Source: Amycolatopsis sp. DSM 110486 (GTDB lineage: Bacteria; Actinomycetota; Actinomycetes; Mycobacteriales; Pseudonocardiaceae). Taken from it: a stretch of 64,000 nt of DNA. Below, piece by piece: positions 11,241 to 63,273 of this stretch; the first letter of the stretch is position 1, and each line of letters opens with the position of its first letter. The position numbers were made by a program, and so were the translations under genes. The stretch covers positions 10,223,001 to 10,287,000 of the forward strand of contig NZ_CP080519.1 of assembly GCF_019468465.1 (NCBI RefSeq), written 5' to 3'. The notes under the pieces were generated by a model that was given only the letters and a program-made list of their open reading frames with translations, was not told where the DNA came from and made no database searches.

Positions 11241-11791
11241 GGAACCGGCAGTTCGCTGAGGACGCCCGCGCTCTCGTACGGATGGCACAGGAACGCGCCC
11301 GCACGCTCGGACACCCCGGGATCGGCTCCGAGCACCTGCTCTTCGCGGTCGCGGACGCACCCACCCGAGTAGGCGAGGTGGCCCGGGAGTACGGCTTGAC
11401 TCCCGACGGCGTCGCCACCCAAACCGACCGGCTCCTGGCCAGGCCACGCCGGGCGTTCGACAACGTGGACGCCGAGGCGCTCGCCGCGATCGGCATCGAC
11501 CTGGACGCGGTGCGGGAAGCGCTCGAGACCAATTTCGGCCCCATCCCGCCACCCTGGCCGCTGACCCGGCGTCCGCGGCTACCAGGACACCTGCCGATCA
11601 CCGGTCGGGCCCGGTCCTGTCTGCGGGCCGCGGTCACCGAGGCCGGGCGCCGTGGCGTGTCCCCCGCCGGGGCCAGTCACCTCGGCGCTGTCGTGGTCGG
11701 CACGTCCGGCGGGATGGTGCCGCCGATCCTGACCGCCCTCGGTATCTCCGCGCCGGCACTCCGGACGGCGCTTCTCGAACGCACCTGGTGA
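11237..11791 (+). CDS. Clp N-terminal-domain protein (ClpC adaptor-like, no ATPase)
   Basis: A 184-residue protein made of Clp-N repeats without AAA+ modules. The first repeat (about 1-75) has the ClpC-like ARALVRMAQERARTLGHPGI and GSEHLLFAVA. A second, poorer repeat covers about 110-184 (GRARSCLRAAVTEAGRRGVS, then SHLGAVVVG). In ClpC/ClpA this domain receives substrates and adaptors, so a free copy may act as adaptor, decoy or sensor of damaged protein. It overlaps the HTH gene by four bases (ATGA), so the two are translationally coupled, and a small membrane protein follows after 4 bp. The exact role is unknown. Confidence 0.85.
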   Translation: MRNRQFAEDARALVRMAQERARTLGHPGIGSEHLLFAVADAPTRVGEVAREYGLTPDGVATQTDRLLARPRRAFDNVDAEALAAIGIDLDAVREALETNFGPIPPPWPLTRRPRLPGHLPITGRARSCLRAAVTEAGRRGVSPAGASHLGAVVVGTSGGMVPPILTALGISAPALRTALLERTW

Positions 11792-11795
11792 CGTC

Positions 11796-12086
11796 ATGAC
11801 CCTCCGGAACCGCCAGGCCCTGTGGTGGCTGCTCGCGACAGGCGTGGCCGCCTGGGCCGGCAGCTGGCGCATCATCCACTTGGAAGTGACCCGCTGGCAC
11901 CATCTGGACTCACGCCTGCGCTTCACTCCGCCGCCCGCGCCTCCCGGCGGTCCGGCTCCCCACGCCGGACTACCGGTGATCATGGCCCTCGCGGTCGCCG
12001 GAGCCGCCCCGCTGGTGTCCATCGTGGTCATCACACTCCTGCTCGCACGTCCGTCCGCAAAGGACAAAAAGCACGCAGCCGGCTGA
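11796..12086 (+). CDS. Small two-span membrane protein
   Basis: A 96-residue protein of no recognised family. A first hydrophobic segment lies near residues 8-27 (ALWWLLATGVAAWAGSWRII). A proline-rich linker (FTPPPAPPGGPAPHAG) follows, then a second span near 60-84 (VIMALAVAGAAPLVSIVVIT). The end is basic (KDKKHAAG). It begins four bases after the Clp-N-domain gene, so it belongs to the same operon and may tie the HTH/Clp-N module to the membrane; that is inference. It is convergent with the glycosyltransferase gene; the 146 bp between show nothing distinctive. Confidence 0.7.
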   Translation: MTLRNRQALWWLLATGVAAWAGSWRIIHLEVTRWHHLDSRLRFTPPPAPPGGPAPHAGLPVIMALAVAGAAPLVSIVVITLLLARPSAKDKKHAAG

Positions 12087-12232
12087 CGTCGTCTCGGGTC
12101 AGTCGTGGCCGAAGCCGGAGCAGCCATGGTTCGAGAGTGCCCCGTCCCGCAGCCGGTGTCCGCCGATGTGGCCGCGATGTCGCTGTGCTCTGGCCGAATT
12201 CGATGATCCACGGGAGCATCCGCTGCGCCCGG

Positions 12233-52008: not shown

Positions 52009-52545
52009 ATGACCTCTACGCCCAAGCTGAGCACGGCGTCGCGGACTCTCGCCCCAGGCGCCACCGAGACCACCACGGCACTCGTCGTGAACGGAGAACC
52101 GAGGGTGGTGGTCGCCGACTCGCGCGTCACGCTGCTCGACGCTCTGCGTGACCGGCTGGACCTCACGGGCACGAAGAAGGGCTGTGACCAGGGCGCGTGT
52201 GGCGCGTGCACGGTGCTCGCCGACGGGCACCGGGTGCTTTCGTGCCTGACGCTCGTCGCCCAATGCGAAGGCCGTGAGGTGACCACCATCGAGGGGCTCT
52301 CCCGCGACGGGCGCGCGCACCCGATGCAGGATGCGTTCGTCCGGCACGACGCATTCCAGTGCGGCTACTGCACACCCGGCCAGATCATGTCGGCCGTGGC
52401 ACTGCTGGCCGAAGGCCGCGCGAAGACCGACGAGGACATCCGCGAGTTCATGAGCGGGAACCTCTGCCGCTGCGCCGCATACCCCAACATCGTGGCCGCG
52501 ATCCGGGAAGTGGCGGACATCGGAGGTACCGATGCGCGCGTTTGA
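52009..52545 (+). CDS. Molybdoenzyme 2Fe-2S subunit (xanthine dehydrogenase/YagT-like)
   Basis: A 178-residue subunit with two [2Fe-2S] domains: ferredoxin-like CDQGACGACTVLADGHRVLS plus its fourth Cys, then the helical domain with CGYCTPG and CRC. It passes electrons from the molybdenum site to FAD. A non-conserved N-terminal extension of about 25 residues lacks a clear Tat RR motif. The next gene starts 14 bases before its stop. Confidence 0.92.
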   Translation: MTSTPKLSTASRTLAPGATETTTALVVNGEPRVVVADSRVTLLDALRDRLDLTGTKKGCDQGACGACTVLADGHRVLSCLTLVAQCEGREVTTIEGLSRDGRAHPMQDAFVRHDAFQCGYCTPGQIMSAVALLAEGRAKTDEDIREFMSGNLCRCAAYPNIVAAIREVADIGGTDARV

Positions 52546-53518
52546 GTACGTCCGGACGTCCGAGGTAGGCGACGCGCTGGCGGCATCGGAGCGCGCCGGC
52601 GCCGCCTACCTCGCCGGAGGCACCACCCAGGTCGACCTGATGAAAGACGGAGTCCTCGCACCCGATCGACTGGTCGACATCACCCGGCTGCCGCTGCGCG
52701 GGGTCCTCGGCACCGGGCACTCGCTGCACGTCGGCGCACTGACCACAATGGAGGAGCTGGCCGCGGATCCGCTCGTCACGCACCGGCTGCCCGTGGTGCG
52801 CGAGGCGCTCCTGCTCGGAGCCTCCGTGCAGCTGCGGAACATGGCCACGATCGGCGGCAACCTCCTGCAGCGCACGCGCTGCCGCTACTTCCGCGACCCG
52901 GCGGTCGCCGCCTGCAACAAGCGTGCGCCGGGCTCCGGCTGCGCCGCCGTCGCCGGACCCGCCCGGATGCACGCCATCCTCGGCGTCAGCGAGCGGTGCA
53001 TCGCCCTGCACGCGTCCGACCTCGCCGTGGCCCTGGTGGCGCTGGACGCCGTGGTGCACCTTGAGAGCGCCCGGGGAACGCGGACCGTGCCGCTTACGGA
53101 GTTCTACCTGGAGGCGGGCACGACGCCGAGCTCCGAAACCGTGCTGGCACACGGTGAGCTGATCACGGAGGTCGAGATCCCGCTGTTGCCGGAGACCATG
53201 CGCTCGGGCTACCTGAAGGTCCGGGACCGGGTGTCGTACGAGTTCGCCCTGGTCTCGGTGGCGGCAGCTCTCGAGATCGAGGACGGAGTCGTGAGCAAGG
53301 CGAGGATCGGCCTCGGCGGCGTCGGTTCGAAGCCCTGGCGGGCCCTGGCGGCCGAGGAGGTGCTGCGAGGCGCGCCGGCGACCGAGGCGAGCTACCGCGA
53401 GGCCGCGGACGCCGCGGTCACCGGGGCGTGGACCGTGCCGGGCACCGCGTTCAAGGTCGAGCTGGCCGAGCGGGCTCTGGTCCGGCAGCTCCAGACGGTA
53501 TCGGAGATGTCCCGATGA
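52532..53518 (+). CDS. Molybdoenzyme FAD-binding subunit (YagS-like)
   Basis: A 328-residue FAD subunit: AAYLAGGTTQVDLMKDGVLA and SVQLRNMATIGGNLLQRTRC are the FAD-binding motifs of the CoxM/YagS family. An insertion with three Cys after the FAD motif (TRCRYFRDPAVAACNKRAPG then SGC) matches the extra [4Fe-4S] loop of YagS. It overlaps both neighbours, so subunits are made together. Confidence 0.9.
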   Translation: MRAFEYVRTSEVGDALAASERAGAAYLAGGTTQVDLMKDGVLAPDRLVDITRLPLRGVLGTGHSLHVGALTTMEELAADPLVTHRLPVVREALLLGASVQLRNMATIGGNLLQRTRCRYFRDPAVAACNKRAPGSGCAAVAGPARMHAILGVSERCIALHASDLAVALVALDAVVHLESARGTRTVPLTEFYLEAGTTPSSETVLAHGELITEVEIPLLPETMRSGYLKVRDRVSYEFALVSVAAALEIEDGVVSKARIGLGGVGSKPWRALAAEEVLRGAPATEASYREAADAAVTGAWTVPGTAFKVELAERALVRQLQTVSEMSR

Positions 53519-55722
53519 CCACCTTCCAGGCGCTGCCGTTCATCGGCGCCGGGCTCAACCGGGTCGACGGACCCCGCAAAGTCAGCGGTCAGGCGCCCTA
53601 CTCGTCGGACTTCAGCGCGCCCGGACAAGTGCACGCCGTCCTCGTACGGAGCACCATCGCGGCGGGCCGGATCACCGCGATCGACGCGGCCACCGCCGAA
53701 GCGGCACCCGGAGCGGTGAAGGTGTTCAGCCATCTGAACGCACCCTCGCTGGCGCGGGGGCCGATGACCCCACTGGGCTCGTCGCCGCCGGCTCCGCTGC
53801 AGGACGACCGCGTGCTGCACCACGGGCAGCACGTCGCGCTGGTCGTCGCGGAGACCCGCGAACAGGCCGATGCGGCCGCGGCCCTGGTGCGCGTCGAGTA
53901 CGCGGCCGCCGAACCGGTCCTCGACCCGGAAGATCCTCGTGCGGTCATCGTCGACAACCCGTGGGGCCTGGACCGCGAGCGAGGTGACCTCGCGGCGGGT
54001 CTGGCCGCGGCGCACGTGACGGTCGAGGCCGAATACGCCACGTCGGACAACACCAACAACCCGCTGGGCCTGTTCGCCACGCTCGCCGAGTGGGAAGGCG
54101 ATCGGCTCACGGTGCACGACTCGACGCAGTGGCCGTCGATGGTGCAGGAGACGCTCGCGGTGGTCTTCGGCCTGCCCGAGGAGTCGGTGCGGGTGCTCAG
54201 CCCGTTTGTCGGCGGCGGATTCGGTGCCGGTCTGCGGGCGTGGCCGCACGTGATCCTCGCCGCGATGGCGGCACGTGAACTGGGCCGGCCGGTGAAGCTC
54301 GTACTGACCCGGCCGCAGATGTTCACTTCGGTCGGCCACCGGCCCAAAGGCGTCCAGCGGGTGCGGCTCGGCGCGAGCGCCGACGGCCGTCTGCTGGCGC
54401 TGGAGCACCGCAGCCGCTCGCTGCTGGCCGTCGAGGACGACGACTACGAACCCTTCGCAGCGGGCTCGGCCGTGGCCTACGCCTGCCCGAACGTCCGCAC
54501 GTGGGACCAGCAGGTGCGGGTGAACATCCCGGCGCCGGTGTCGATGCGGGCGCCGGCCGAGGCACAGGGGAACTTCGCGCTCGAATCCGCGATGGACGAA
54601 CTGGCGCTGGCACTCCGCATGGACCCGGTGGACCTGCGGCTGCGCAACTACGCCGACACGCATCCCGCGCTGGGCCTGCCGTGGTCGGGCAAGGCATTGC
54701 GGGAGTGCTGCACCGTGGGCGCCGAGCGGTTCGGATGGTCCCGGCGCCCGGCCGAGCCGCGCACCCTGCGCGACGGGCACTGGCTGGTCGGCCAGGGCAT
54801 GGCGGGCGTGAGCTACCCGTGGTACCAAGCGCCGTGCTCGGCACGAGCGACGGTGGCGGCCGACGGGCAGGCCACCGTCAGCAGCGCGGCCATCGACATC
54901 GGCACAGGTACCTACACGGTGATGACCCAGCTCTCGGCGGAGCTGCTCGGCTTACCACCGGAGCGAGTGCGTTTCGAGCTTGGCGACTCGGACCTGCCGA
55001 AGGCACCCCAGGCGGGCGGGTCCGGCCTCACCGGCGCGCTCGGCTCGGCCGTCCACGACGCATGTGCGCGGTTGCTCGGCGCGCTGCTCGACCTCGTGCG
55101 CGACGACGCCCGATCGCCATTGCGCGGCAGTGACCCCGCGGACGTGGTCGCCGCCGGCGGACGGCTCCGGCGGCGCGACGAGCCGGAGCGCGCCGAAACC
55201 TACACCGCCATCCTGGCCCGCCACGGACTGCCGGACCTCTCCGCCGAAGGGAGCAGCACCCCGGCCGATCCCCGTGACCTCGGCATGGCACCCGCGGGCG
55301 CGTTCGGAGCGCACTTCGCCGAGGTCCGGGTCGACGAGGACCTCGGCCTGGTCCGCGTGACGCGCGTGGTGTCGGTGATCGACGGTGGCCGCATTCTCAA
55401 CGAGAAGACGTCCACCAGCCAGATCATCGGCGGCGTGATCGGCGGCATCGGCATGGCGCTGTTCGAGGACACGGTCACCGACCCGACCACCGGCCGCATC
55501 ACGAACGCGACCTTCGGCGACTACCTCGTCCCCGTGCACGCGGACATCCCCGACATCGACGTCACCTTCGTCGGCGAGCCCGACCGCATGAACCCGATCG
55601 GGACCAAAGGGGTCGGCGAGGTCGGCTTGGTGGGCGTGGCTGCCGCGGTCGCCAACGCGGTGCACCACGCAACCGGGGTACGAGTGCGGTCCCTGCCGAT
55701 CACCCTGGACGCACTGCTGTGA
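53515..55722 (+). CDS. Molybdoenzyme large subunit (aldehyde/xanthine dehydrogenase family, YagR-like)
   Basis: A 735-residue molybdopterin-binding subunit. GAGLNRVDGPRKVSGQAPYS opens domain 1, SPFVGGGFGAGLRAWPHVIL and SMRAPAEAQGNFALESAMDE are pterin/substrate motifs, and TKGVGEVGLVGVAAAVANAV carries the catalytic Glu. Order and lengths (178/328/735) match YagTSR aldehyde oxidoreductases. ATG at 53515 overlaps the FAD-subunit stop as ATGA. Substrate may be an aldehyde or N-heterocycle; no maturation factor gene is adjacent. Confidence 0.92.
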   Translation: MTTFQALPFIGAGLNRVDGPRKVSGQAPYSSDFSAPGQVHAVLVRSTIAAGRITAIDAATAEAAPGAVKVFSHLNAPSLARGPMTPLGSSPPAPLQDDRVLHHGQHVALVVAETREQADAAAALVRVEYAAAEPVLDPEDPRAVIVDNPWGLDRERGDLAAGLAAAHVTVEAEYATSDNTNNPLGLFATLAEWEGDRLTVHDSTQWPSMVQETLAVVFGLPEESVRVLSPFVGGGFGAGLRAWPHVILAAMAARELGRPVKLVLTRPQMFTSVGHRPKGVQRVRLGASADGRLLALEHRSRSLLAVEDDDYEPFAAGSAVAYACPNVRTWDQQVRVNIPAPVSMRAPAEAQGNFALESAMDELALALRMDPVDLRLRNYADTHPALGLPWSGKALRECCTVGAERFGWSRRPAEPRTLRDGHWLVGQGMAGVSYPWYQAPCSARATVAADGQATVSSAAIDIGTGTYTVMTQLSAELLGLPPERVRFELGDSDLPKAPQAGGSGLTGALGSAVHDACARLLGALLDLVRDDARSPLRGSDPADVVAAGGRLRRRDEPERAETYTAILARHGLPDLSAEGSSTPADPRDLGMAPAGAFGAHFAEVRVDEDLGLVRVTRVVSVIDGGRILNEKTSTSQIIGGVIGGIGMALFEDTVTDPTTGRITNATFGDYLVPVHADIPDIDVTFVGEPDRMNPIGTKGVGEVGLVGVAAAVANAVHHATGVRVRSLPITLDALL

Positions 55723-56005: not shown

Positions 56006-57199
56006 TCAGCGGACGAATCCGGGAAGCAACCCGAGCGCAGGGACCACCGCTGCCGTGCACACCGTCATGGACACGACGTTGCCCACGAAGGGGTGGAACG
56101 CGTCCGGGAGCCTTCGTGAGGTGTACGCGGCGAGGGGCGGAGCGAGGATCGCGCCCAGGACGGCGCCGCCCACGATGGTCGGGACGGTGGGGCCGTAGGT
56201 GAGCACTACGGCGGGTGCGACGGAGACCAGGGGGACAAAAGTCGGGTACCAGCCGTGTCGGGCCCACTGGCGGCGGTAGAGCAGGACGCCGAGCGTCGAG
56301 GTCAGGACCTGGGTGGTGAGCAGTGCCGGGAGCAGCGCGGTGCCGTGCGCCGGGGTCAGCGGGTTGAGCAGGTACGTGAGCAGCGTGCCGACGAGCAGGC
56401 CGGCCGAGCTGATTTCGTTGCCGTGGAACGGTGCTTCGGTGAAGTCGGCAAGTACGCGGCGGACGACCCACGCAGGTCCTTGGCGTGACGGATCGACCGG
56501 ATCGGGTGCCGGTGTCGGCAGCTGTGGGAACCACGGCAGTATCCGGCACAGCGGGAACGCGAGCAGCGCACTGAGCCACATCCCACTGGCGGTGCCGATC
56601 GAGGTGGGCAGCCCCAGTGGGTAGCACACGAACTGGACCAGTCCGATCGCGATCGGCGTCGTCAGCATGACACCGAGGACCGCGCCGGTGAGGGCCACCC
56701 GCCAGCCCGGCCCGTAGATCAGCACGACCGCGGGCGGGATCGACACGAACGCGACGAACGTCGGCTGCCACGCGCCCGTGGCGGGGATCGTCCAGCCCCA
56801 CGCGAGGTTCGACAGCAGCAGCCCGAGCAGCGCCGATCCGGTGAGCCACGGCCACAACCCGGTGCCGGCAGCGATCGGGAACCCGGCCCAGCGGCGCCGC
56901 CGGGTCGCCGCGACGTGGGCGATCCAGCCGCCGGCGAGCAGGCCGAGCCCGCCGAGATCGGTTTTGAACGACTGCGCCTCGGTCGTGTCGCCGAGGCACC
57001 AGCGCAGGAACGGGGGAATCCGGGCGTACGCCTGCTCCTGCCACACGTCGTAGCCGGGAAGCACGTGCGGCAGCGAGCTACCGGCCGCCGAGAGCAGGTG
57101 AGCGAGGCCGGCGGTCACGGCCACGAGCGCACCGCCGGCGAGCCAGCGGCCCAGCGCGCCGGGAGCGCGCCCGACGGGCGGTGCGGGGAGCGTGGTCAT
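56006..57199 (-). CDS. Membrane protein with internal duplication, function unknown
   Basis: A 397-residue protein with about eight to ten spans and no family I recognise. Two halves repeat: WQPTFVAFVSIPPAVVLIYG followed by PGWRVALTGAVLG (about 165-200), and WYPTFVPLVSVAPAVVLTYG followed by TIVGGAVLG (about 315-350). Each repeat ends in a second P-rich span. Between the halves lies a charged loop, PAPDPVDPSRQGPAWVVRRV. This symmetry is typical of small-molecule transporters. ATG at 57199; convergent with the molybdoenzyme operon and divergent from the DJ-1/AraC regulator. Confidence 0.78.
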   Translation of the reverse strand: MTTLPAPPVGRAPGALGRWLAGGALVAVTAGLAHLLSAAGSSLPHVLPGYDVWQEQAYARIPPFLRWCLGDTTEAQSFKTDLGGLGLLAGGWIAHVAATRRRRWAGFPIAAGTGLWPWLTGSALLGLLLSNLAWGWTIPATGAWQPTFVAFVSIPPAVVLIYGPGWRVALTGAVLGVMLTTPIAIGLVQFVCYPLGLPTSIGTASGMWLSALLAFPLCRILPWFPQLPTPAPDPVDPSRQGPAWVVRRVLADFTEAPFHGNEISSAGLLVGTLLTYLLNPLTPAHGTALLPALLTTQVLTSTLGVLLYRRQWARHGWYPTFVPLVSVAPAVVLTYGPTVPTIVGGAVLGAILAPPLAAYTSRRLPDAFHPFVGNVVSMTVCTAAVVPALGLLPGFVR

Positions 57200-57600
57200 G
57201 TCGCCGGTGATCGGCGAACGGCCGAGAAACGTGGCACCGCTTTCCTTATCGACCCGGTTCGTTCCCCCACGCTGATCTGCCCGACCCGAAGTCGGCGTGA
57301 AACCGGATCAACCTGGTTTCGCGTGATTCCGGTGTCTGTCCTTCGCGTTGTCGTCGACGAGTTTCCTGCTGGTTCGACGAGGGGGTCGGCCGACCGAGCA
57401 GGAAGCGTTGCCCTACCACGACTTCCGGGCGGACTCTGTCAGTCTGCCGGCAGTGGTGAGCTGTGCTGCAGAGCGAAAACCGACCGGGTTCCCACAGATC
57501 CGGACATCGGTTCGGCATGGGGAGCCAGGGATGCAACGCTTCGGACAACCCGGCGCTTCGGCAACCGCGCGCCGGGTTCGACGATTGCGAGGTCAGGTCA
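57200..57600. other. Divergent regulatory region of the DJ-1/AraC cluster
   Basis: About 400 bp between two divergent genes. It contains the 17-bp motif TCCCACAGATCCGGACA at 57490-57506, which recurs exactly (inverted) at 59499-59515, and the short palindrome CTGCCGGCAG at 57446-57455. No other feature is evident. Confidence 0.6.
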
Positions 57601-58563
57601 GTGCCCAGCTCGAGGAACGTGGTGTTCGTCATCTTCGACGGGGTGAAAAGCCTGGACGTGGCCGGGCCGGCAGAGGTCTTCGCCGAAGCGAACCTCTTCG
57701 GGGCGGACTACTCGCTGTCCTATGTGTCACCTTCGGGTGAGGCCGTGGCCACCTCGACCGGGTCGACCATGCCCGTCGACGGTCCCGCCGCCAGCGTGGC
57801 GCGCGCGGACACCGTCGTGGTCTGCGGCGGCGATGTCCTTGTCGGCGCCCCCATCGATCCCGAGCTCGTGGCTGCCATCCGGGTGCTTCGCGAGCGGACC
57901 CGCCGGCTCGTCTCCATTTGCACGGGATCCTTCGCCCTGGCCACCGCGGGCGCGTTGTCCGGGCGTCGGGCAACCACACATTGGCGCCACGCGCAGCTTT
58001 TCGCTCGTGCGTTCCCGGACGTCGACGTCCTCCCGGATGCTCTCTTCGTCGAGGACCGAGGTGTGTTCACGTCGGCGGGGGTGTCCGCCGGGATCGACCT
58101 CGCCCTGGCCTTGGTCGAGGCCGACAACGGCCCTGACCTCGCGCGTGCCGTTGCTCGAAACCTTGTCGTTTTCATGCAACGCCCCGGTGGCCAGTCGCAG
58201 TTCTCTGCCCCTCTGGAGATCAAGCCCGCGCGGACGCCGACGCTGCGAGACGTCGTCGATCTCATTTCCGCGGACCCCGGCCTGGATCACAGCGCCGGCC
58301 GGCTCGCCGACCGGGTCGGGGTGAGCGCTCGGCACCTCATCCGGCTCTTCCAGGCGGAGTTCGACATGACGCCCGCGAGATATGTCGAGAAAGTCAGGCT
58401 TGATCACGCGAAGTCGCTGCTGGATTCAGGACACAACGTCGAAGAGGCGGCGGCGGGCGCGGGATTCGGGAGCCCGGAGACGATGCGCCGCACCTTTGTG
58501 GCTCGATTGGGGCTCTCGCCGAGTCAGTATCGCGACCGGTTCAAGAGCACGGGCAGGCCATAG
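57601..58563 (+). CDS. GlxA-like regulator: DJ-1/PfpI domain plus AraC helix-turn-helix
   Basis: A 320-residue regulator. The N-terminal DJ-1/PfpI-like domain (about 5-170) opens RNVVFVIFDGVKSLDVAGPA and keeps a Cys at the nucleophile elbow (SICTGSFALATAGALSGRRA). The C-terminal AraC domain (about 215-315) has both helix-turn-helices: LADRVGVSARHLIRLFQAEF and AAAGAGFGSPETMRRTFVAR. Family members sense small nitrogen compounds such as arginine, carnitine or glycine betaine. GTG at 57601 follows GAGG and matches the family start; the frame stays open to 57463. It probably acts at the 17-bp motif upstream of itself and of the M24 gene. Confidence 0.88.
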   Translation: MPSSRNVVFVIFDGVKSLDVAGPAEVFAEANLFGADYSLSYVSPSGEAVATSTGSTMPVDGPAASVARADTVVVCGGDVLVGAPIDPELVAAIRVLRERTRRLVSICTGSFALATAGALSGRRATTHWRHAQLFARAFPDVDVLPDALFVEDRGVFTSAGVSAGIDLALALVEADNGPDLARAVARNLVVFMQRPGGQSQFSAPLEIKPARTPTLRDVVDLISADPGLDHSAGRLADRVGVSARHLIRLFQAEFDMTPARYVEKVRLDHAKSLLDSGHNVEEAAAGAGFGSPETMRRTFVARLGLSPSQYRDRFKSTGRP

Positions 58564-58575
58564 AATTCGTGCCGG

Positions 58576-59310
58576 TCATCCGGTCGAGAAATTCAGTGCC
58601 AAGCGAAGTGCCTTGCCCAGTGGTTTCGGAACGAGCAGCGACATTCGACCGCCGGGTAGTTCTTCGGCGTTTCGGCGAGCCAGTGCCGAAAGAGTGCGGT
58701 GGATGTCGTGGGACGGGTACAGGACATAGGCTTGACCTATGGCCCCGGGCGGCAGCTGCCACCTGCGGATACCGGCAAGATCGGCCATGGCACCGGCTTG
58801 GACGTAGTAGCCGATCGGGTCCGTGGACCTGTCGAGGCCGGGTGTCGCGTGCGCGACCACGGCATCGGCGGCTTCGAGGGCTCTGCGGCGCGGCGCGCCG
58901 GCGCGGTCGAAAACCTCGAGAACGGTGTCCGCAGATCGCCGCGTGAAATCCTCTCCGGGCACGCTGACGAGCATTCCCGAGTCGTGCAGCAGTGCCGTTA
59001 CGAAGAGAAGTTCCGCATCGACCTCGGTCTGGTCCGCCTGGGCCAACGCTGTGCCGAGCAGCCAGGTTCGGTAGCCGTGGAAGAGAAGCGTGGTGCCTTG
59101 TTTCTTGGCCATCTCGACAGCGGTGCTCGCGACTTCGGTGTCGGGAACGTCCGGAAAGAGGCTTTCCGTCGAGTGTGGCCGGTTCATCGGCCACGTGATG
59201 AAACCACCGATCGTCTCCAGGAGGAATTTTCGCATGCCGGCGCGGACGGACGAACGCTCGGCGCGAGTCAGTACGCCGTTCGTTTCGCAGACCCAGTCGT
59301 AACTGGCCAT
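58576..59310 (-). CDS. HD-domain hydrolase (cyanamide-hydratase-like)
   Basis: A 244-residue HD-domain protein. Metal ligands are visible as His78 (LLFHGYRTWLL), His109-Asp110 (VTALLHDSGML) and probably His154 (DAVVAHATPGL). The order FPDVPDTEVAS, HGYRTW, LLHD and the late YYVQAGAMADLAGIRRWQLP resemble the Ddi2/cyanamide hydratase group, which adds water to cyanamide to give urea, but many relatives have other substrates. ATG at 59310 lacks a strong ribosome site. Convergent with the regulator (12 bp apart) and divergent from the M24 gene across an inverted pair of the shared motif. Confidence 0.8.
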   Translation of the reverse strand: MASYDWVCETNGVLTRAERSSVRAGMRKFLLETIGGFITWPMNRPHSTESLFPDVPDTEVASTAVEMAKKQGTTLLFHGYRTWLLGTALAQADQTEVDAELLFVTALLHDSGMLVSVPGEDFTRRSADTVLEVFDRAGAPRRRALEAADAVVAHATPGLDRSTDPIGYYVQAGAMADLAGIRRWQLPPGAIGQAYVLYPSHDIHRTLSALARRNAEELPGGRMSLLVPKPLGKALRLALNFSTG

Positions 59311-59448
59311 CGCTGACGACGAAGTAACTGAGGTCGATCCACTTGCTGCGTCGCCGCTTGCGCACACGAGGGCTCCAGTGAGACGGGGGATTCCTGCTTC
59401 CAGCTTTGGTGATCGGCAAAGTCCCGGCCAGGCGATGGGTGACCGGCA

Positions 59449-59515
59449 TCCCACAAATTCGGACGCGACTGCGCCGGATCGGCAAGGTGGTCCGATTCTG
59501 TCCGGATCTGTGGGA
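59449..59515. promoter_or_regulatory. Inverted pair of the cluster motif
   Basis: TCCCACAAATTCGGACG (59449-59465) on the plus strand faces TCCCACAGATCCGGACA on the minus strand (59499-59515). The second copy is identical over 17 bp to 57490-57506; the first differs at three bases. The pair lies between the divergent HD and M24 genes. Confidence 0.65.
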
Positions 59516-59605
59516 TTTTCGTCAGGTTCTGCTCTTCAGTGCCGTACCTGGCTCGCAGACGCTGGTGCTGATCAACATCGACGCCACCACCGGAGGCACC
59601 GGACC

Positions 59606-60502
59606 TTGACCCGCGAACTGTTTACCGAAGAAGAACTCGTTGCGTTCAAGGCGGCTCAACGTCTCGCCTTCGACGCGACGGTCGCGATCGAAGCCGAATT
59701 GCACGAAGGGATCACCGAGCAGCAGGCGGCCGGGAAGCTCGAGCGCTGGCTTCGTGCGCGTGGCGTTTCCCACTTCTTCCACTACGGCTTCGTCTGGTTC
59801 GGCGACCGTACTCGGTTCCTGGACTTTCCGCCGCTTCCCCGTCGGGTGCGAGACCTCTTCGAGGCCAAACCGGTTCGTGGCAGTGGACATTATCGGCCGA
59901 GCGGTCGCCGGTTGACTCAGGGCGATGCGGTCATTCTCGATATCGGCCCCATCTATCGGCGTGGAGCCGCCGATATCGGGTACTCTTGCACACTCGGCGA
60001 GCCGACGGAAGAATTCCACGAAACCCGAATGGCACTCGCCGCCTTTCGTCCGATGATTCTGGAGATGGTGCGCAATGGCGATGCCCAGGCCAGGATCGAC
60101 AAAGCGGTGGACGAGTACACCCAAGATCACGGTTATGTGAACATCCACTCGATGTACCCCGGGTCCGCGATCGCGCACCGCGTCGGCCGAGTGCCCGGTC
60201 TGCGGTTGCCGACGTTCAATGTGAAGGGTTTCAGCCCGCAGACGGTCAGCTATCTGGCGGGCGACGTCGTCGGATCGGCTCTACGCCTGGACGTTCGCGC
60301 CGCGCCCTTCTGGAAACCGAAGTCCGACCGGCCGTGTGAGCCGGGTTTGTGGGCGTTCGAGCCGCACATCGGCCGCGGCGACGTCGGCGCGAAATGGGGC
60401 GAGGTTCTCGTGGTGACCGAGGACACCGCGTACTGGCTCGACGACGACCTGCCGCACGTTCGCTATTGGGCTGATCACGATGTTGTCCAGGACGCTTCCT
60501 GA
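59606..60502 (+). CDS. M24-family metallohydrolase (aminopeptidase P/creatinase fold)
   Basis: A 298-residue pita-bread-fold protein without the N-terminal creatinase domain. All five metal ligands are present: Asp112 (VILDIGPIY), Asp123 (GAADIGYS), His191 (AIAHRVGRV), Glu252 (WAFEPHIG) and Glu266 (KWGEVLVV). It is probably a dimetal peptidase or amidinohydrolase; the atypical surroundings (YRPSGRRLTQGDAVILDIGP) suggest a specialised substrate. TTG at 59606 is chosen because GGAGG (59592-59596) is just upstream; no better start exists before LTRELFTEEELVAF. It is followed after 77 bp by the broken FAD oxidoreductase. Confidence 0.85.
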   Translation: MTRELFTEEELVAFKAAQRLAFDATVAIEAELHEGITEQQAAGKLERWLRARGVSHFFHYGFVWFGDRTRFLDFPPLPRRVRDLFEAKPVRGSGHYRPSGRRLTQGDAVILDIGPIYRRGAADIGYSCTLGEPTEEFHETRMALAAFRPMILEMVRNGDAQARIDKAVDEYTQDHGYVNIHSMYPGSAIAHRVGRVPGLRLPTFNVKGFSPQTVSYLAGDVVGSALRLDVRAAPFWKPKSDRPCEPGLWAFEPHIGRGDVGAKWGEVLVVTEDTAYWLDDDLPHVRYWADHDVVQDAS

Positions 60503-60579
60503 GTGGTGACAGCGCCGCGCCGGCCTTGTCCGACCGGCCCGGTTTCCCGATATTCACAGTTCACCAGGAGAAATACCAT

Positions 60580-61733
60580 GACCTTCGACGATTCTTCTTT
60601 GCCGCCGGTGCTGCCTGATGACGCCGCGTCCCTGGCTGGTGATCGACGCCGTCAGCCACACGGCCCGGGTCGGCGCCGGGGCGTTGTGGGCCGAGGTCGT
60701 TGCGGAAGCGGCGAAGGTCGGACTGGCCCCGCTCAACGGGTCGAATCCCACGGTGGGAGTCTCCGGTTACACCCTCGGCGGCGGCCTCAGCCCGACGCTG
60801 GGCCGCTCCCACGGCTACGCTGCCGACCACGTGCGCTCGCTCGAGGTGGTGACCGCGGACGGCGAACTGCGCCACGTCGACCCCGAGTCCGAACCCGAAC
60901 TGTTCTGGGCGCTGCGCGGCGGAAAGGGCAACTTCGCCGTGGTGACCGCGTTGGAGTTCGACTTGTTCCCGGTGCCCCGCCTCTACGGCGGCGCCCTCTA
61001 CTTCCCCGGTGAGCGGATGGCCGACGTGCTGCAGGCCTGGGCCGACTGGCACCCGGGCACACCGGAGACCATGGTCTCGTCGTTCGCCGTGCTGCGGCTG
61101 CCACCGCTGCCCGAACTGCCCGAGCCGCTGCGCGGGGCGTTCTCGGTGTCTCTGCGGTTCGCGTACAACGGCACGGCCGAGGACGGCGAGCGCATGGTGG
61201 CTCCATTGCGGACAGTGGCTCCGGCGATCCTCGACACCGTGCGGGACATGCCGTACAGCGAGGTCGCGTCGATCCACAACGAGCCGACCGAGCCGTTGCC
61301 CTACTACGAGAGGGGCATCATGCTGCGAGAGTTCCCCGCGGAGGCACAGGAAAAGCTCATCGAACTCGTCGGCCCGGAATCCGACACCACCATGTGGATC
61401 GCCGAACTGCGTGCGCTGGGCGGGGCGTGGGACCGCGAGCCGGCAGTGCCCAACGCCGTGGCAACCAGGGGCCTGCCATACAGCCTGCTGGGCGTCGAGG
61501 TCGGTCCGCTGTCGCAGGAAAACCAGCTCAAGAAGTCGGTCGCCGCACTGCTCGAGGGCATGCGGCCCTGGCAAAGCGACCGGCGGCTGGTCAACAACCT
61601 CGCCCCCGAAGAGGCTTTCGACGCTGCCGCGATCTACGGACCGGAGCGCTACGAACGCCTCGCGGCCGTCAAGTCGACGTATGACCCGGGCAACATGTTC
61701 CGGGTAAACCACAACGTGGTGCCGGCGGACTGA
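60580..61733 (+). pseudogene. FAD-dependent (berberine-bridge-like) oxidoreductase lacking its N-terminal FAD domain
   Basis: A good ribosome site and ATG (60580) give MTFDDSSLPPVLPDD, then the frame goes out of register. The other frame, from about 60620 to 61733, is the rest of a BBE-type oxidase: VIDAVSHTARVGAGALWAEV, GVSGYTLGGGLSPTLGRSHG, FWALRGGKGNFAVVTALEFD and the BBE tail (YGPERYERLAAVKSTYDPGN). About 85 residues between LPDD and VIDAV, including the PCMH loop and the His that anchors FAD, are missing. An internal out-of-frame deletion is the simplest reading. ATG 60618 could still start a truncated 371-residue protein. Confidence 0.75.
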
Positions 61734-61838: not shown

Positions 61839-61858
61839 TCAAATGTACGTACATTTGA
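61839..61858. promoter_or_regulatory. Perfect 20-bp palindrome, TetR-type operator
   Basis: TCAAATGTACGTACATTTGA is perfectly self-complementary and lies 50 bp upstream of the disulfide-reductase start. Its TGTACGTACA core is typical of TetR-family operators. No TetR gene is adjacent within the window. Confidence 0.75.
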
Positions 61859-61908: not shown

Positions 61909-63273
61909 ATGTCCACCGTGGACTCCACGCACTTCGATCTCGTCGTGATCGGATTCGGCAGAGGGGGCAAAACACTGGCCGCCGCGATGGGGCGGCGCGG
62001 CAAGCGTGTCGCCGTGATCGAGCGGTCGGCGCAGATGTACGGCGGTACCTGCCCCAACGTCGGGTGCGTGCCCACCAAGTCGCTGATCCACCACGCCGAA
62101 ACCGGTACCGGCCACGGCGAAGCCGTCGGAAAGACGCGGAACCTGACCACGAGGCTGCGCGGCATCAACTTCTCCACCCTCGACTCGATCGACTCCGTCA
62201 CGGTCCTCACCGGACGGGCCGCGTTCGTCGACCCCAAAACGGTGGAGGTCAGCGCCGGCGACGAACGCCTGACCGTGACCGGCGACACCATCATCATCAA
62301 CACCGGGGCCGAGCCCGTCCTGCCCGCCATCCCCGGGTTCGCCGACAGCAACCGCGTTCACACGAGCACCGACCTCATCGGGCGAGACAACCTCCCGCGC
62401 AGGTTGGCCGTGCTCGGCGGTGGGCACGTGGGCATCGAGTTCGCGTCGATGTTCGCGCAGTTCGGCAGCGAGGTGACGGTGCTCGACCAGGCGCCGCGCA
62501 TCCTGGGCCGCGAGGACGACGCCGTCGCGGCGGCCGCGGAACAGGTGCTGGCCGACACCCGAGTCCGGTTCGTTCTCGGCGCTCAGGTCACCCGGTTGTC
62601 CGAGACGGCCGAGGGCGCCCGACTCGACTATCGCCAGGGTGAAGACGGCAGCACAATCGTCGTCGACGCCGTGCTGGTCGCGGCCGGCCGCAAGCCCGCC
62701 ACGGAAGGCCTGCGCTTGGACCTCGCGGGTGTGGCGACCACGGCCGGCGGTGCGGTCGAAGTGGACGATCGGCTGCGCACCAGCCAGCCCCACATCTTCG
62801 CGGTCGGCGACGTCAAGGGCGGACCGCAGTTCACCTACGTCTCCCTCGACGACAGCAGGATCGTCGCCGACCAGCTCGCCGGCCTCGGCACCCGATCCAC
62901 TGCCGACCGCGTGCACATCCCCTACACGCTCTTCCTGACGCCCCCCTTGGCACGAGTGGGACTCACCGAACGGGAGGCGCGCGAGCAGGGGTACGCGGTG
63001 AAGGTGGCGGAAAAAGCGGTCGCGGACATCGTGGCGATGCCCAAAGCGAAGATCCTCGGAGAAACCCGGGGGCTGATGAAATTCGTGATCGACGCGAAGA
63101 CGGACCAGATCCTCGGCGCCGCCTTGCTGAGCGTCGACGCGCAGGAGCTGATCAACCTGGTCACGCTGGCCATGCGGCACGGGGTGACCGCCGCGGATCT
63201 GCGCGACGGGATCTACACACACCCGTCGTCGACTGAAGCCTTCAACGAAGTGCTGGCCGCTACGCGGAGCTGA
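61909..63273 (+). CDS. RclA-like pyridine nucleotide-disulfide oxidoreductase
   Basis: A 454-residue FAD/NAD(P) flavoenzyme: FDLVVIGFGRGGKTLAAAMG at the FAD site, redox pair Cys48/Cys53 in GGTCPNVGCVPTKSLIHHAE, second nucleotide site VLGGGHVGIEFASMFAQFGS, FAVGDVKGGPQFTYVSLDD, and the C-terminal dimer motif THPSSTEAFNEVL. CVPTKSLIHHAE and the HPS (not HPT) ending resemble RclA, which reduces reactive chlorine or hypothiocyanous products, more than mycothione reductase. AGGAGG precedes the ATG at 61909; a start at 61825 would run through the operator and is unlikely. Control by the palindrome is probable. Confidence 0.88.
   Translation: MSTVDSTHFDLVVIGFGRGGKTLAAAMGRRGKRVAVIERSAQMYGGTCPNVGCVPTKSLIHHAETGTGHGEAVGKTRNLTTRLRGINFSTLDSIDSVTVLTGRAAFVDPKTVEVSAGDERLTVTGDTIIINTGAEPVLPAIPGFADSNRVHTSTDLIGRDNLPRRLAVLGGGHVGIEFASMFAQFGSEVTVLDQAPRILGREDDAVAAAAEQVLADTRVRFVLGAQVTRLSETAEGARLDYRQGEDGSTIVVDAVLVAAGRKPATEGLRLDLAGVATTAGGAVEVDDRLRTSQPHIFAVGDVKGGPQFTYVSLDDSRIVADQLAGLGTRSTADRVHIPYTLFLTPPLARVGLTEREAREQGYAVKVAEKAVADIVAMPKAKILGETRGLMKFVIDAKTDQILGAALLSVDAQELINLVTLAMRHGVTAADLRDGIYTHPSSTEAFNEVLAATRS

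What the first reader, a model, noticed from the sequence alone, without database searches (positions are those of the whole stretch)
57490..59515. A 17-bp motif recurs exactly in both control regions of a DJ-1/AraC, HD, M24 and FAD gene cluster
TCCCACAGATCCGGACA is found about 95 bp upstream of the GlxA-like regulator (57490) and, inverted, upstream of the M24 gene (59499-59515). A third copy with three differences faces it at 59449. A 17-bp exact repeat only in the two intergenic gaps of one cluster suggests a dedicated operator. The enzymes (cyanamide-hydratase-like HD hydrolase, M24 metallohydrolase, BBE oxidase) with a regulator type that senses small nitrogen compounds suggest an undescribed nitrogen-compound catabolic regulon.
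Basis: partly seen in the sequence, partly recalled or inferred. Interest (0 to 1): 0.72.

Follow-up and report, generated by a model that had tools for sequence, protein, structure and literature searches.

The report
Shared regulator switch before HD-enzyme genes
The repeated 17-base sequence is the core of a control site that actinomycete bacteria repeatedly place, in one fixed direction, in front of genes for an HD-type enzyme, often beside a DJ-1/AraC-type regulator; here a second, unrelated enzyme gene has picked up the same switch.

Summary
The motif is real: exact at 57490-57506 (+) and 59499-59515 (-), 3 mismatches at 59449-59465. These are the only exact copies in a 10.98-Mb genome, Amycolatopsis-like. 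It is conserved in four loci of three species, the HD/M24 pair always 50 bp apart. The 17-mer is the core of a 25-bp element, GAC-N6-CCCAC-RR-AT-YY-GGAC, with two GTC half-sites 21 bp apart, as in Pseudomonas ArgR/CdhR operators. It is not private to this cluster: of 33 HD genes beside diverged GlxA genes, 24 carry it upstream, all 24 in one direction; of 41 HD genes fetched by HD similarity, 12 do, all in that direction; reversed controls 0 of 33 and 0 of 41. Distant M24 homologs lack it (0 of 14), so M24 was probably recruited locally. The BBE gene is N-terminally truncated; nothing here tests nitrogen-compound sensing. Best reading: an autoregulated GlxA-type operator controlling HD and, in this lineage, M24. 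Binding, effector and sign of control are inferred. New variant of a known operator type.

The parts
57482..57506 (+). Operator R: 25-bp element GACCGGGTTCCCACAGATCCGGACA upstream of the GlxA regulator; its TGTCC...GTGGG...GTC reading points to the divergent membrane-protein gene
   Evidence: PWM score 35.1 (a training site); core kept in L051 and, with 2 differences, in L053
59441..59465 (+). Operator HD: GACCGGCATCCCACAAATTCGGACG; TGTCC-type reading points to the HD gene
   Evidence: PWM score 32.3 (a training site); kept in 4 of 4 loci with 2-4 differences from the 17-mer
59499..59523 (-). Operator M24: GACGAAAATCCCACAGATCCGGACA; TGTCC-type reading points to M24; 50 bp from operator HD, inverted
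   Evidence: PWM score 40.1 (a training site); kept in 4 of 4 loci with 0-2 differences and unchanged 50-bp spacing
57601..58563 (+). GlxA-type regulator: DJ-1/PfpI domain (6-173) and AraC HTH_18 (235-313), start GTG
   Evidence: Pfam PF01965 83.6 bits, PF12833 86.1 bits
58576..59367 (-). HD-domain protein of the cyanamide-hydratase-like group; start GTG 59367 proposed (ATG 59310 is the shorter alternative)
   Evidence: TIGR03401 30.3 bits, below cut-off; AlphaFold model of the 244-aa form pLDDT 88, best PDB match yeast Ddi2; start:
59606..60502 (+). M24-family metalloenzyme (prolidase/aminopeptidase fold), start TTG with GGAGG ahead
   Evidence: PF00557 72.5 bits; D112 D123 H191 E252 E266 invariant in 17 sequences
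56006..57199 (-). Membrane protein of unknown family, divergent from the regulator; only a possible regulon member, because operator R points at it from about 280 bp
   Evidence: No Pfam/NCBIfam match; kept at this place in L051 and L053; 1 of 11 distant homologs has a marginal site, 9.2

Best explanation
The 17-mer is the conserved core of a 25-bp (or longer) operator recognised by the GlxA-type (DJ-1 domain plus AraC domain) regulator encoded at 57601-58563. One operator lies before the regulator (autoregulation, and perhaps the divergent membrane-protein gene). Two outward-facing operators lie between the divergent HD and M24 genes. The regulator most likely activates HD and M24 when its DJ-1 domain binds a small effector. 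The operator-HD link is widespread in actinomycetes; M24 was added in this Amycolatopsis lineage together with its own operator copy. Shown here by sequence: the sites, their conservation, the 21-bp repeat, the fixed orientation, the link to GlxA and HD genes. Inferred: that this protein binds them, activation instead of repression, and the effector.
For: Conservation in 4 loci of 3 species with constant 50-bp spacing; pair architecture in 3 of 390 genomes of the family and only at these loci. 11 of 11 sites share an outer GAC. Diverged GlxA loci: 18 of 56 have a site above 9.1 within 300 bp upstream of GlxA; reversed 0 of 59; column-permuted matrices mean 0.61, max 11. Core-only matrix: GAC at one offset in 6 of 11 and G[AC]C in 10 of 11; at the other 22 offsets together GAC once and G[AC]C 11 times, at most 4 at one offset. 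HD genes: 24 of 33 and 12 of 41 have the site, all in one orientation, reversed 0 of 33 and 0 of 41; the closest regulator homologs (69-72%), without a site before GlxA, carry it before HD, 5 of 5. Distant M24 homologs 0 of 14, membrane-protein homologs 1 of 11 (9.2). Known GATR operators share half-site core and period (passages).
Against: No binding or expression data. 17 other GlxA-type places at E<=1e-20 lie in the same genome, so the cognate protein is not certain. 9 of 33 GlxA-linked HD genes have no site above threshold in the 400 bp before them (two of these have it before the GlxA-HD pair), 29 of 41 HD genes fetched by HD similarity lack it, and 9 of the 12 that have it show no GlxA gene within the fetched 1.5 kb. 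38 of 56 GlxA genes have no site within 300 bp upstream. One permuted matrix reached 11 hits, one a best score of 18.1, and one reversed stretch reached 13.9 with the less specific core-only matrix. Operator R is oriented opposite to the regulator gene. No -10/-35 was established.
Confidence: 0.8

Rival explanations
1. The operator is real but is read mainly by a paralogous GlxA regulator, or by several of them as a shared network, not by the neighbouring gene product.
For: The genome has 18 GlxA-type places at E<=1e-20, this one included. Related sites precede paralogs: 17.1 at -68 of the 48% paralog, and 30.1 before an OsmC-like gene beside the 49% paralog in three species. A second HD-M24 locus (L052) has no regulator beside it, and 9 of 12 HD genes with the operator in the second set have no GlxA within 1.5 kb.
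Against: Only this cluster has the exact 17-mer in the genome; L052's genome carries the regulator 1.3 Mb away; site and regulator are kept together in 3 of 3 loci that have the regulator.
Confidence: 0.14
2. The regulator is a repressor at these sites: occupancy blocks HD and M24 until an effector releases it.
For: AraC-type proteins can repress from such sites (general knowledge); operator R is oriented differently to its gene than the operators of HD and M24, so at least one promoter may be repressed.
Against: Fixed orientation and fairly constant distance before HD genes (24 of 24 one way; 23 of 24 start 94-149 bp before the HD match, one 322 bp) is what activators need; CdhR activates from direct repeats (passages of PMC5806209).
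Confidence: 0.18
3. The exact repeat is only a recent copy of a promoter segment (or mobile-element remnant) with no regulatory role.
For: Loci show duplication and decay: a second HD-M24 copy (L052), fragments of regulator and M24 with sites in L051, an orphan site in L178.
Against: Flanks of the three sites differ while cores stay alike in 3 species; diverged GlxA/HD loci keep the same element in the same orientation.
Confidence: 0.03

Closest known systems
GATR/AraC regulators of Pseudomonas (CdhR, GbdR, SouR, ArgR) and their operators
   Same: Operator is a direct repeat of GTC half-sites with a 21-bp period (CdhR: GGTCGC half-sites with a 15-bp spacer, PMC5806209; ArgR: TGTCGCN6GNAA in tandem 5 bp apart, second repeat generally weaker, PMC10963909; passages seen). 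CdhR and GbdR are AraC proteins of the GATase-1 subfamily, CdhR's target operon is divergent and it affects its own expression. The variant in one order-level relative, TGTCGC...GTGGG (L223), starts like the ArgR half-site.
   Different: Half-site here TGTCC-N6-GTGGG; targets are HD and M24 enzymes; actinomycetes; an inverted pair of operators between divergent enzyme genes. The regulator is below the NCBIfam cut-offs for GbdR (136.4/480) and FtrA (225.7/425). That ArgR has a GATase1-like domain is recalled, not seen.
Yeast Ddi2 cyanamide hydratase (HD superfamily)
   Same: Best fold match of the HD model (6dka, E 9e-7, TM 0.63); H78, H109, D110 align with the Ddi2 H...HD stretch.
   Different: 19% identity; invariant D177 at the spacing where Ddi2 has T157 in place of the last Asp (passages of PMC8177086); below the TIGR03401 cut-off.
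M24 metallohydrolases (prolidase, aminopeptidase P, methionine aminopeptidase, ectoine hydrolase DoeA)
   Same: Fold and the five expected metal ligands (ligand pattern recalled).
   Different: 12-21% identity in the 50 listed structure matches; model confidence modest (pLDDT 74); no PDB chain at profile E<=1e-10.
AraC regulator MSMEG_0307 of the nat operon, Mycobacterium smegmatis (PMC4266540, passages)
   Same: An actinobacterial AraC-family protein with a mapped motif at its own operon.
   Different: Described site is a 20-bp palindrome; the text has no mention of DJ-1, PfpI or GlxA.

Membership tests
GlxA/GATR-type AraC regulators | N-terminal DJ-1/PfpI (GATase1-like) domain plus C-terminal AraC HTH | tested here: met
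   PF01965 and PF12833 above cut-off
GlxA/GATR-type AraC regulators | Operator is a direct repeat of GTC half-sites about 21 bp apart | tested here: met
   Autocorrelation of the 11 own sites peaks at 21; core-only test, G[AC]C at that one offset in 10 of 11
GlxA/GATR-type AraC regulators | Protein binds the operator and responds to a small molecule | not testable with these tools
   Needs gel shift/footprint and ligand screen
FtrA or GbdR orthologs | Score above the NCBIfam equivalog cut-off | tested here: not met
   225.7 against 425 and 136.4 against 480 bits
Cyanamide hydratase family TIGR03401 | Score above the curated cut-off | tested here: not met
   30.3 against 109.85 bits
Ddi2-type cyanamide hydratase | H...HD zinc site with Thr in place of the last Asp | tested here: inconclusive
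   H78/H109/D110 kept, but invariant D177 lies at the matching spacing; position inferred from spacing, not from a residue-level structural alignment
M24 metallohydrolases | Five metal ligands D, D, H, E, E | tested here: met
   D112 D123 H191 E252 E266 invariant in 17 of 17; which residues are ligands is recalled knowledge of the family
BBE-type flavin oxidases (FAD_binding_4 + BBE) | Complete N-terminal FAD-binding half | tested here: not met
   ORF starts at profile position 96 of 453 and at residue 85 of mitomycin radical oxidase 9r43

The most novel reading that the evidence does not exclude
Actinomycetes share a so far undescribed regulatory code: GlxA-type regulators read a 21-bp-repeat operator (TGTCC-N6-GTGGG-N6-GTC) that is placed in one direction before genes of HD enzymes, next to the regulator or far from it, forming a GlxA-HD regulon across several families; unrelated enzymes (here M24, elsewhere an OsmC-like protein) join by gaining this element. 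The pairing of a DJ-1 sensor with one HD enzyme group points to one unknown class of small substrates.
Probability: 0.7. Interest if true: 0.62.

Novelty: new variant of a known kind. Interest (0 to 1): 0.52.

Why it matters
GlxA-type regulators are numerous in actinomycetes (18 places at E<=1e-20 in this genome alone), yet in the searched library (open-licence PubMed Central papers only) I found no paper that gives an operator for one linked to an HD enzyme. A sequence code with fixed polarity lets one predict targets by pattern, and the recurrent pairing with one HD enzyme group gives a concrete handle (the regulator's effector should be a substrate or product) for assigning chemistry to an orphan enzyme group.

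Tried and rejected
Rejected: chance; recent promoter copying without function; BBE as a member; the RclA-like flavoprotein 61909-63273 as a member: it stays near in the four loci but no site scoring above 11 lies before it in the window. First conclusion corrected: after I took the closest regulator homologs (69-72%) to lack the operator; one search showed it before the HD gene.

Led nowhere: first genome-contig scan with the M24 alignment (0 relatives); the second gave 8 loci in which no HD or regulator homolog was found. Solved-structure search for M24 at 1e-10: none. The PDB profile search for HD ranked two designed repeat proteins above Ddi2; these are short repeated matches. Paper searches gave nothing on the point. 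Promoter hexamers near the sites were looked at by eye only and not claimed. Loose pattern scans gave many weak places (91 and 142 in this genome, 23 and 51 for the backward patterns); the excess over the backward pattern was not explained, and 16 of 37 inspected places looked coding by third-position GC.

Limits: the matrix was trained on 11 sites of this cluster and its orthologs; threshold 9.1 is the 99% point of 400 reversed random 530-bp pieces, used on 300- and 400-bp stretches. Loci within a genus are not independent; 30 distinct site sequences lie behind the 36 upstream-HD hits, and 3 of the 12 positive loci of the second set are also in the first. Of the six HD seed sequences five come from GlxA-linked loci. 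Searches listed more places than they delivered as loci; only the 59 delivered were scanned. The second HD set is L024-L050 and L068-L081, 41 loci; L021-L023 (orthologs), L067 (own) and L082 (present in the first set as L232) were left out. Distances before HD run to the start of the tblastn match, not to a mapped start codon. The labels OsmC-like and TetR are recalled from the sequence, not searched.

Full report
Observation. TCCCACAGATCCGGACA is exact at 57490-57506 (+) and 59499-59515 (-); a 3-mismatch copy is at 59449-59465 (+). In the 10.98-Mb genome these two are the only exact copies; none has one mismatch, three have two, fifteen have three.

Genes. Regulator 57601-58563: DJ-1/PfpI plus AraC HTH. 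HD protein 58576-59367 (-): no Pfam hit (244-aa form), weak cyanamide-family hit, model pLDDT 88 whose best PDB match is yeast Ddi2. A GTG start at 59367 with GGAG ahead is likelier than ATG 59310; the gaps between the loci within that stretch are 15 and 3 bases long. M24 protein 59606-60502: expected metal ligands invariant. The BBE ORF 60618-61733 lacks its N-terminal part. Between core and start codon lie 94 (regulator), 81 (HD, new start) and 90 (M24) bases.

Conservation near by. Of 80 genomes of the genus (own included), 43 have some HD-protein match, but only G010 (two copies, 90 and 85%) and G056 (81%) have a close one besides the own genome; the rest are at 35% identity or less. The four loci keep the HD/M24 site pair with 50-bp spacing; the three loci with a regulator keep the third site. 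The pair architecture (up to 3 mismatches) was found in 3 of 390 genomes of the family, only at these loci. The 11 sites share an outer GAC, giving GAC-N6-CCCAC-RR-AT-YY-GGAC, with single departures at two of the less strict positions.

The element is a regulator-family operator. A 25-bp matrix from the 11 sites was scanned upstream of GlxA genes. In the three genomes, 6 of 39 paralog upstream regions (300 bp) score above 9; permuted matrices give a mean of 0.48, at most 4, though one reached a single best score of 18.1. The best is a 48% paralog with a site at -68 in two species (17.1) and a weaker one in the third (8.2). For the 59 GlxA loci delivered, 18 of the 56 with <80% identity have a site above 9.1 within 300 bp, 13 above 14; reversed sequences 0 of 59; permuted matrices mean 0.61, max 11. 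Counting also sites before the adjacent HD gene, 34 of 56 loci have one, 18 of 29 outside the genus.

Half-sites. With a core-only matrix that does not contain the outer box, 11 of 56 loci exceed the best reversed score (13.9; the next reversed are 9.4). GAC stands at one offset in 6 of these 11 and G[AC]C in 10; at the other 22 offsets together GAC appears once and G[AC]C 11 times, at most 4 at one offset. That offset puts the two GAC (GTC) boxes 21 bp apart. Autocorrelation of the 11 own sites peaks at 21 bp with a second peak at 10 bp (in the wider set the matrix itself favours 21). CdhR has GGTCGC half-sites with a 15-bp spacer and ArgR TGTCGCN6GNAA repeated with 5 bp between (passages of PMC5806209 and PMC10963909): the same half-site core and 21-bp period.

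Link to HD genes and polarity. 33 of the 56 GlxA genes have an HD-family gene within the fetched flank. 24 of these 33 HD genes have a site above 9.1 in the 400 bp before them, all 24 with TGTCC...GTGGG...GTC reading towards HD; 2 more (L216, L217) have it before the GlxA-HD pair, pointing the same way. Of 41 HD loci fetched by HD similarity, 12 have it, all 12 in that orientation; 9 of these 12 have no GlxA gene within 1.5 kb. Reversed controls: 0 of 33 and 0 of 41. Three positive loci occur in both sets; there are 30 distinct site sequences. Five homologs at 69-72% identity have no site before GlxA but each has one before HD (24.8-28.5). Against this: 9 of 33 and 29 of 41 show none above threshold; five of the nine have their best sub-threshold match at the same place and orientation.

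What M24 and the membrane protein add. 14 distant M24 homologs have no site above threshold and no GlxA gene in the fetched flank; of 11 membrane-protein homologs one reaches 9.2. So M24 probably joined the regulon in this lineage with its own operator copy; the membrane protein is only a candidate, because operator R points to it from about 280 bp. Low third-position GC of the HD and M24 reading frames (0.71 and 0.70, frames longer than the genes, against 0.88-0.90 in neighbours) and the sparse distribution suggest acquisition by transfer (inference).

Mechanism. Most likely the regulator dimer binds the 21-bp direct repeat, strong half-site distal and weak half-site next to the promoter, and activates HD and M24 in response to an effector sensed by the DJ-1 domain, while the site before its own gene gives autoregulation. 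Binding, sign and effector are inferred. The enzyme pair does not by itself say nitrogen catabolism: the HD protein is outside the curated cyanamide family, and Asp177 hints at another metal site than that of Ddi2.

Verdict. On checking, confidence in the main reading was lowered slightly, from 0.82 to 0.80, because most operator-bearing HD genes of the second set have no GlxA gene beside them, which leaves more room for paralogs.

Noticed in passing
window 61839-61858: Perfect 20-bp palindrome TCAAATGTACGTACATTTGA just before the RclA-like flavoprotein gene (61909-63273), unlike the GlxA operator; looks like a separate operator.
   Followed up: no
window 60579-61733: BBE/mitomycin-radical-oxidase-like gene with its N-terminal part missing; a short start-codon-led stretch upstream is in another frame, so probably a decayed gene; only a fragment matches in L051.
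   Followed up: partly
L051:9191-10008 and 11449-12116: In A. carbonis copy 1 the M24 match is split over two frames, and 2 kb on lie fragments of a second regulator (first 40 residues) and M24, with a site scoring 27.2 before the regulator fragment.
   Followed up: partly
L113:7960-7984, L114:4124-4148, L115:4183-4207: Site scoring 30.1 before an OsmC-like gene beside a 49% GlxA paralog in three species; in L214/L215 a related site (25.8) is before an HD gene followed by the OsmC-like gene and GlxA. In L113-L115 about 150 bp around the site are almost unchanged, more than a 25-bp operator needs.
   Followed up: partly
L026, L032, L034, L035, L036, L037, L043, L044 (HD upstream regions): Eight HD genes of the genus carry strong sites (22.8-31.3) without a GlxA gene within 1.5 kb, while one search lists a GlxA gene at 51-54% identity elsewhere in each of these genomes; several of those (L204, L205, L207, L209, L210, L211, L213) have no site of their own: possible control in trans.
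   Followed up: partly
L178:1527-1551 (G010:C1:7203026): Orphan site, one mismatch, with the same flank as the M24 operator, but no cluster gene recognised after it; probably a remnant.
   Followed up: partly
window 52532-55722: FAD and molybdenum subunits of an aldehyde/xanthine-dehydrogenase-type enzyme (PaoC-like) just upstream of the cluster; no match in L051-L053.
   Followed up: partly
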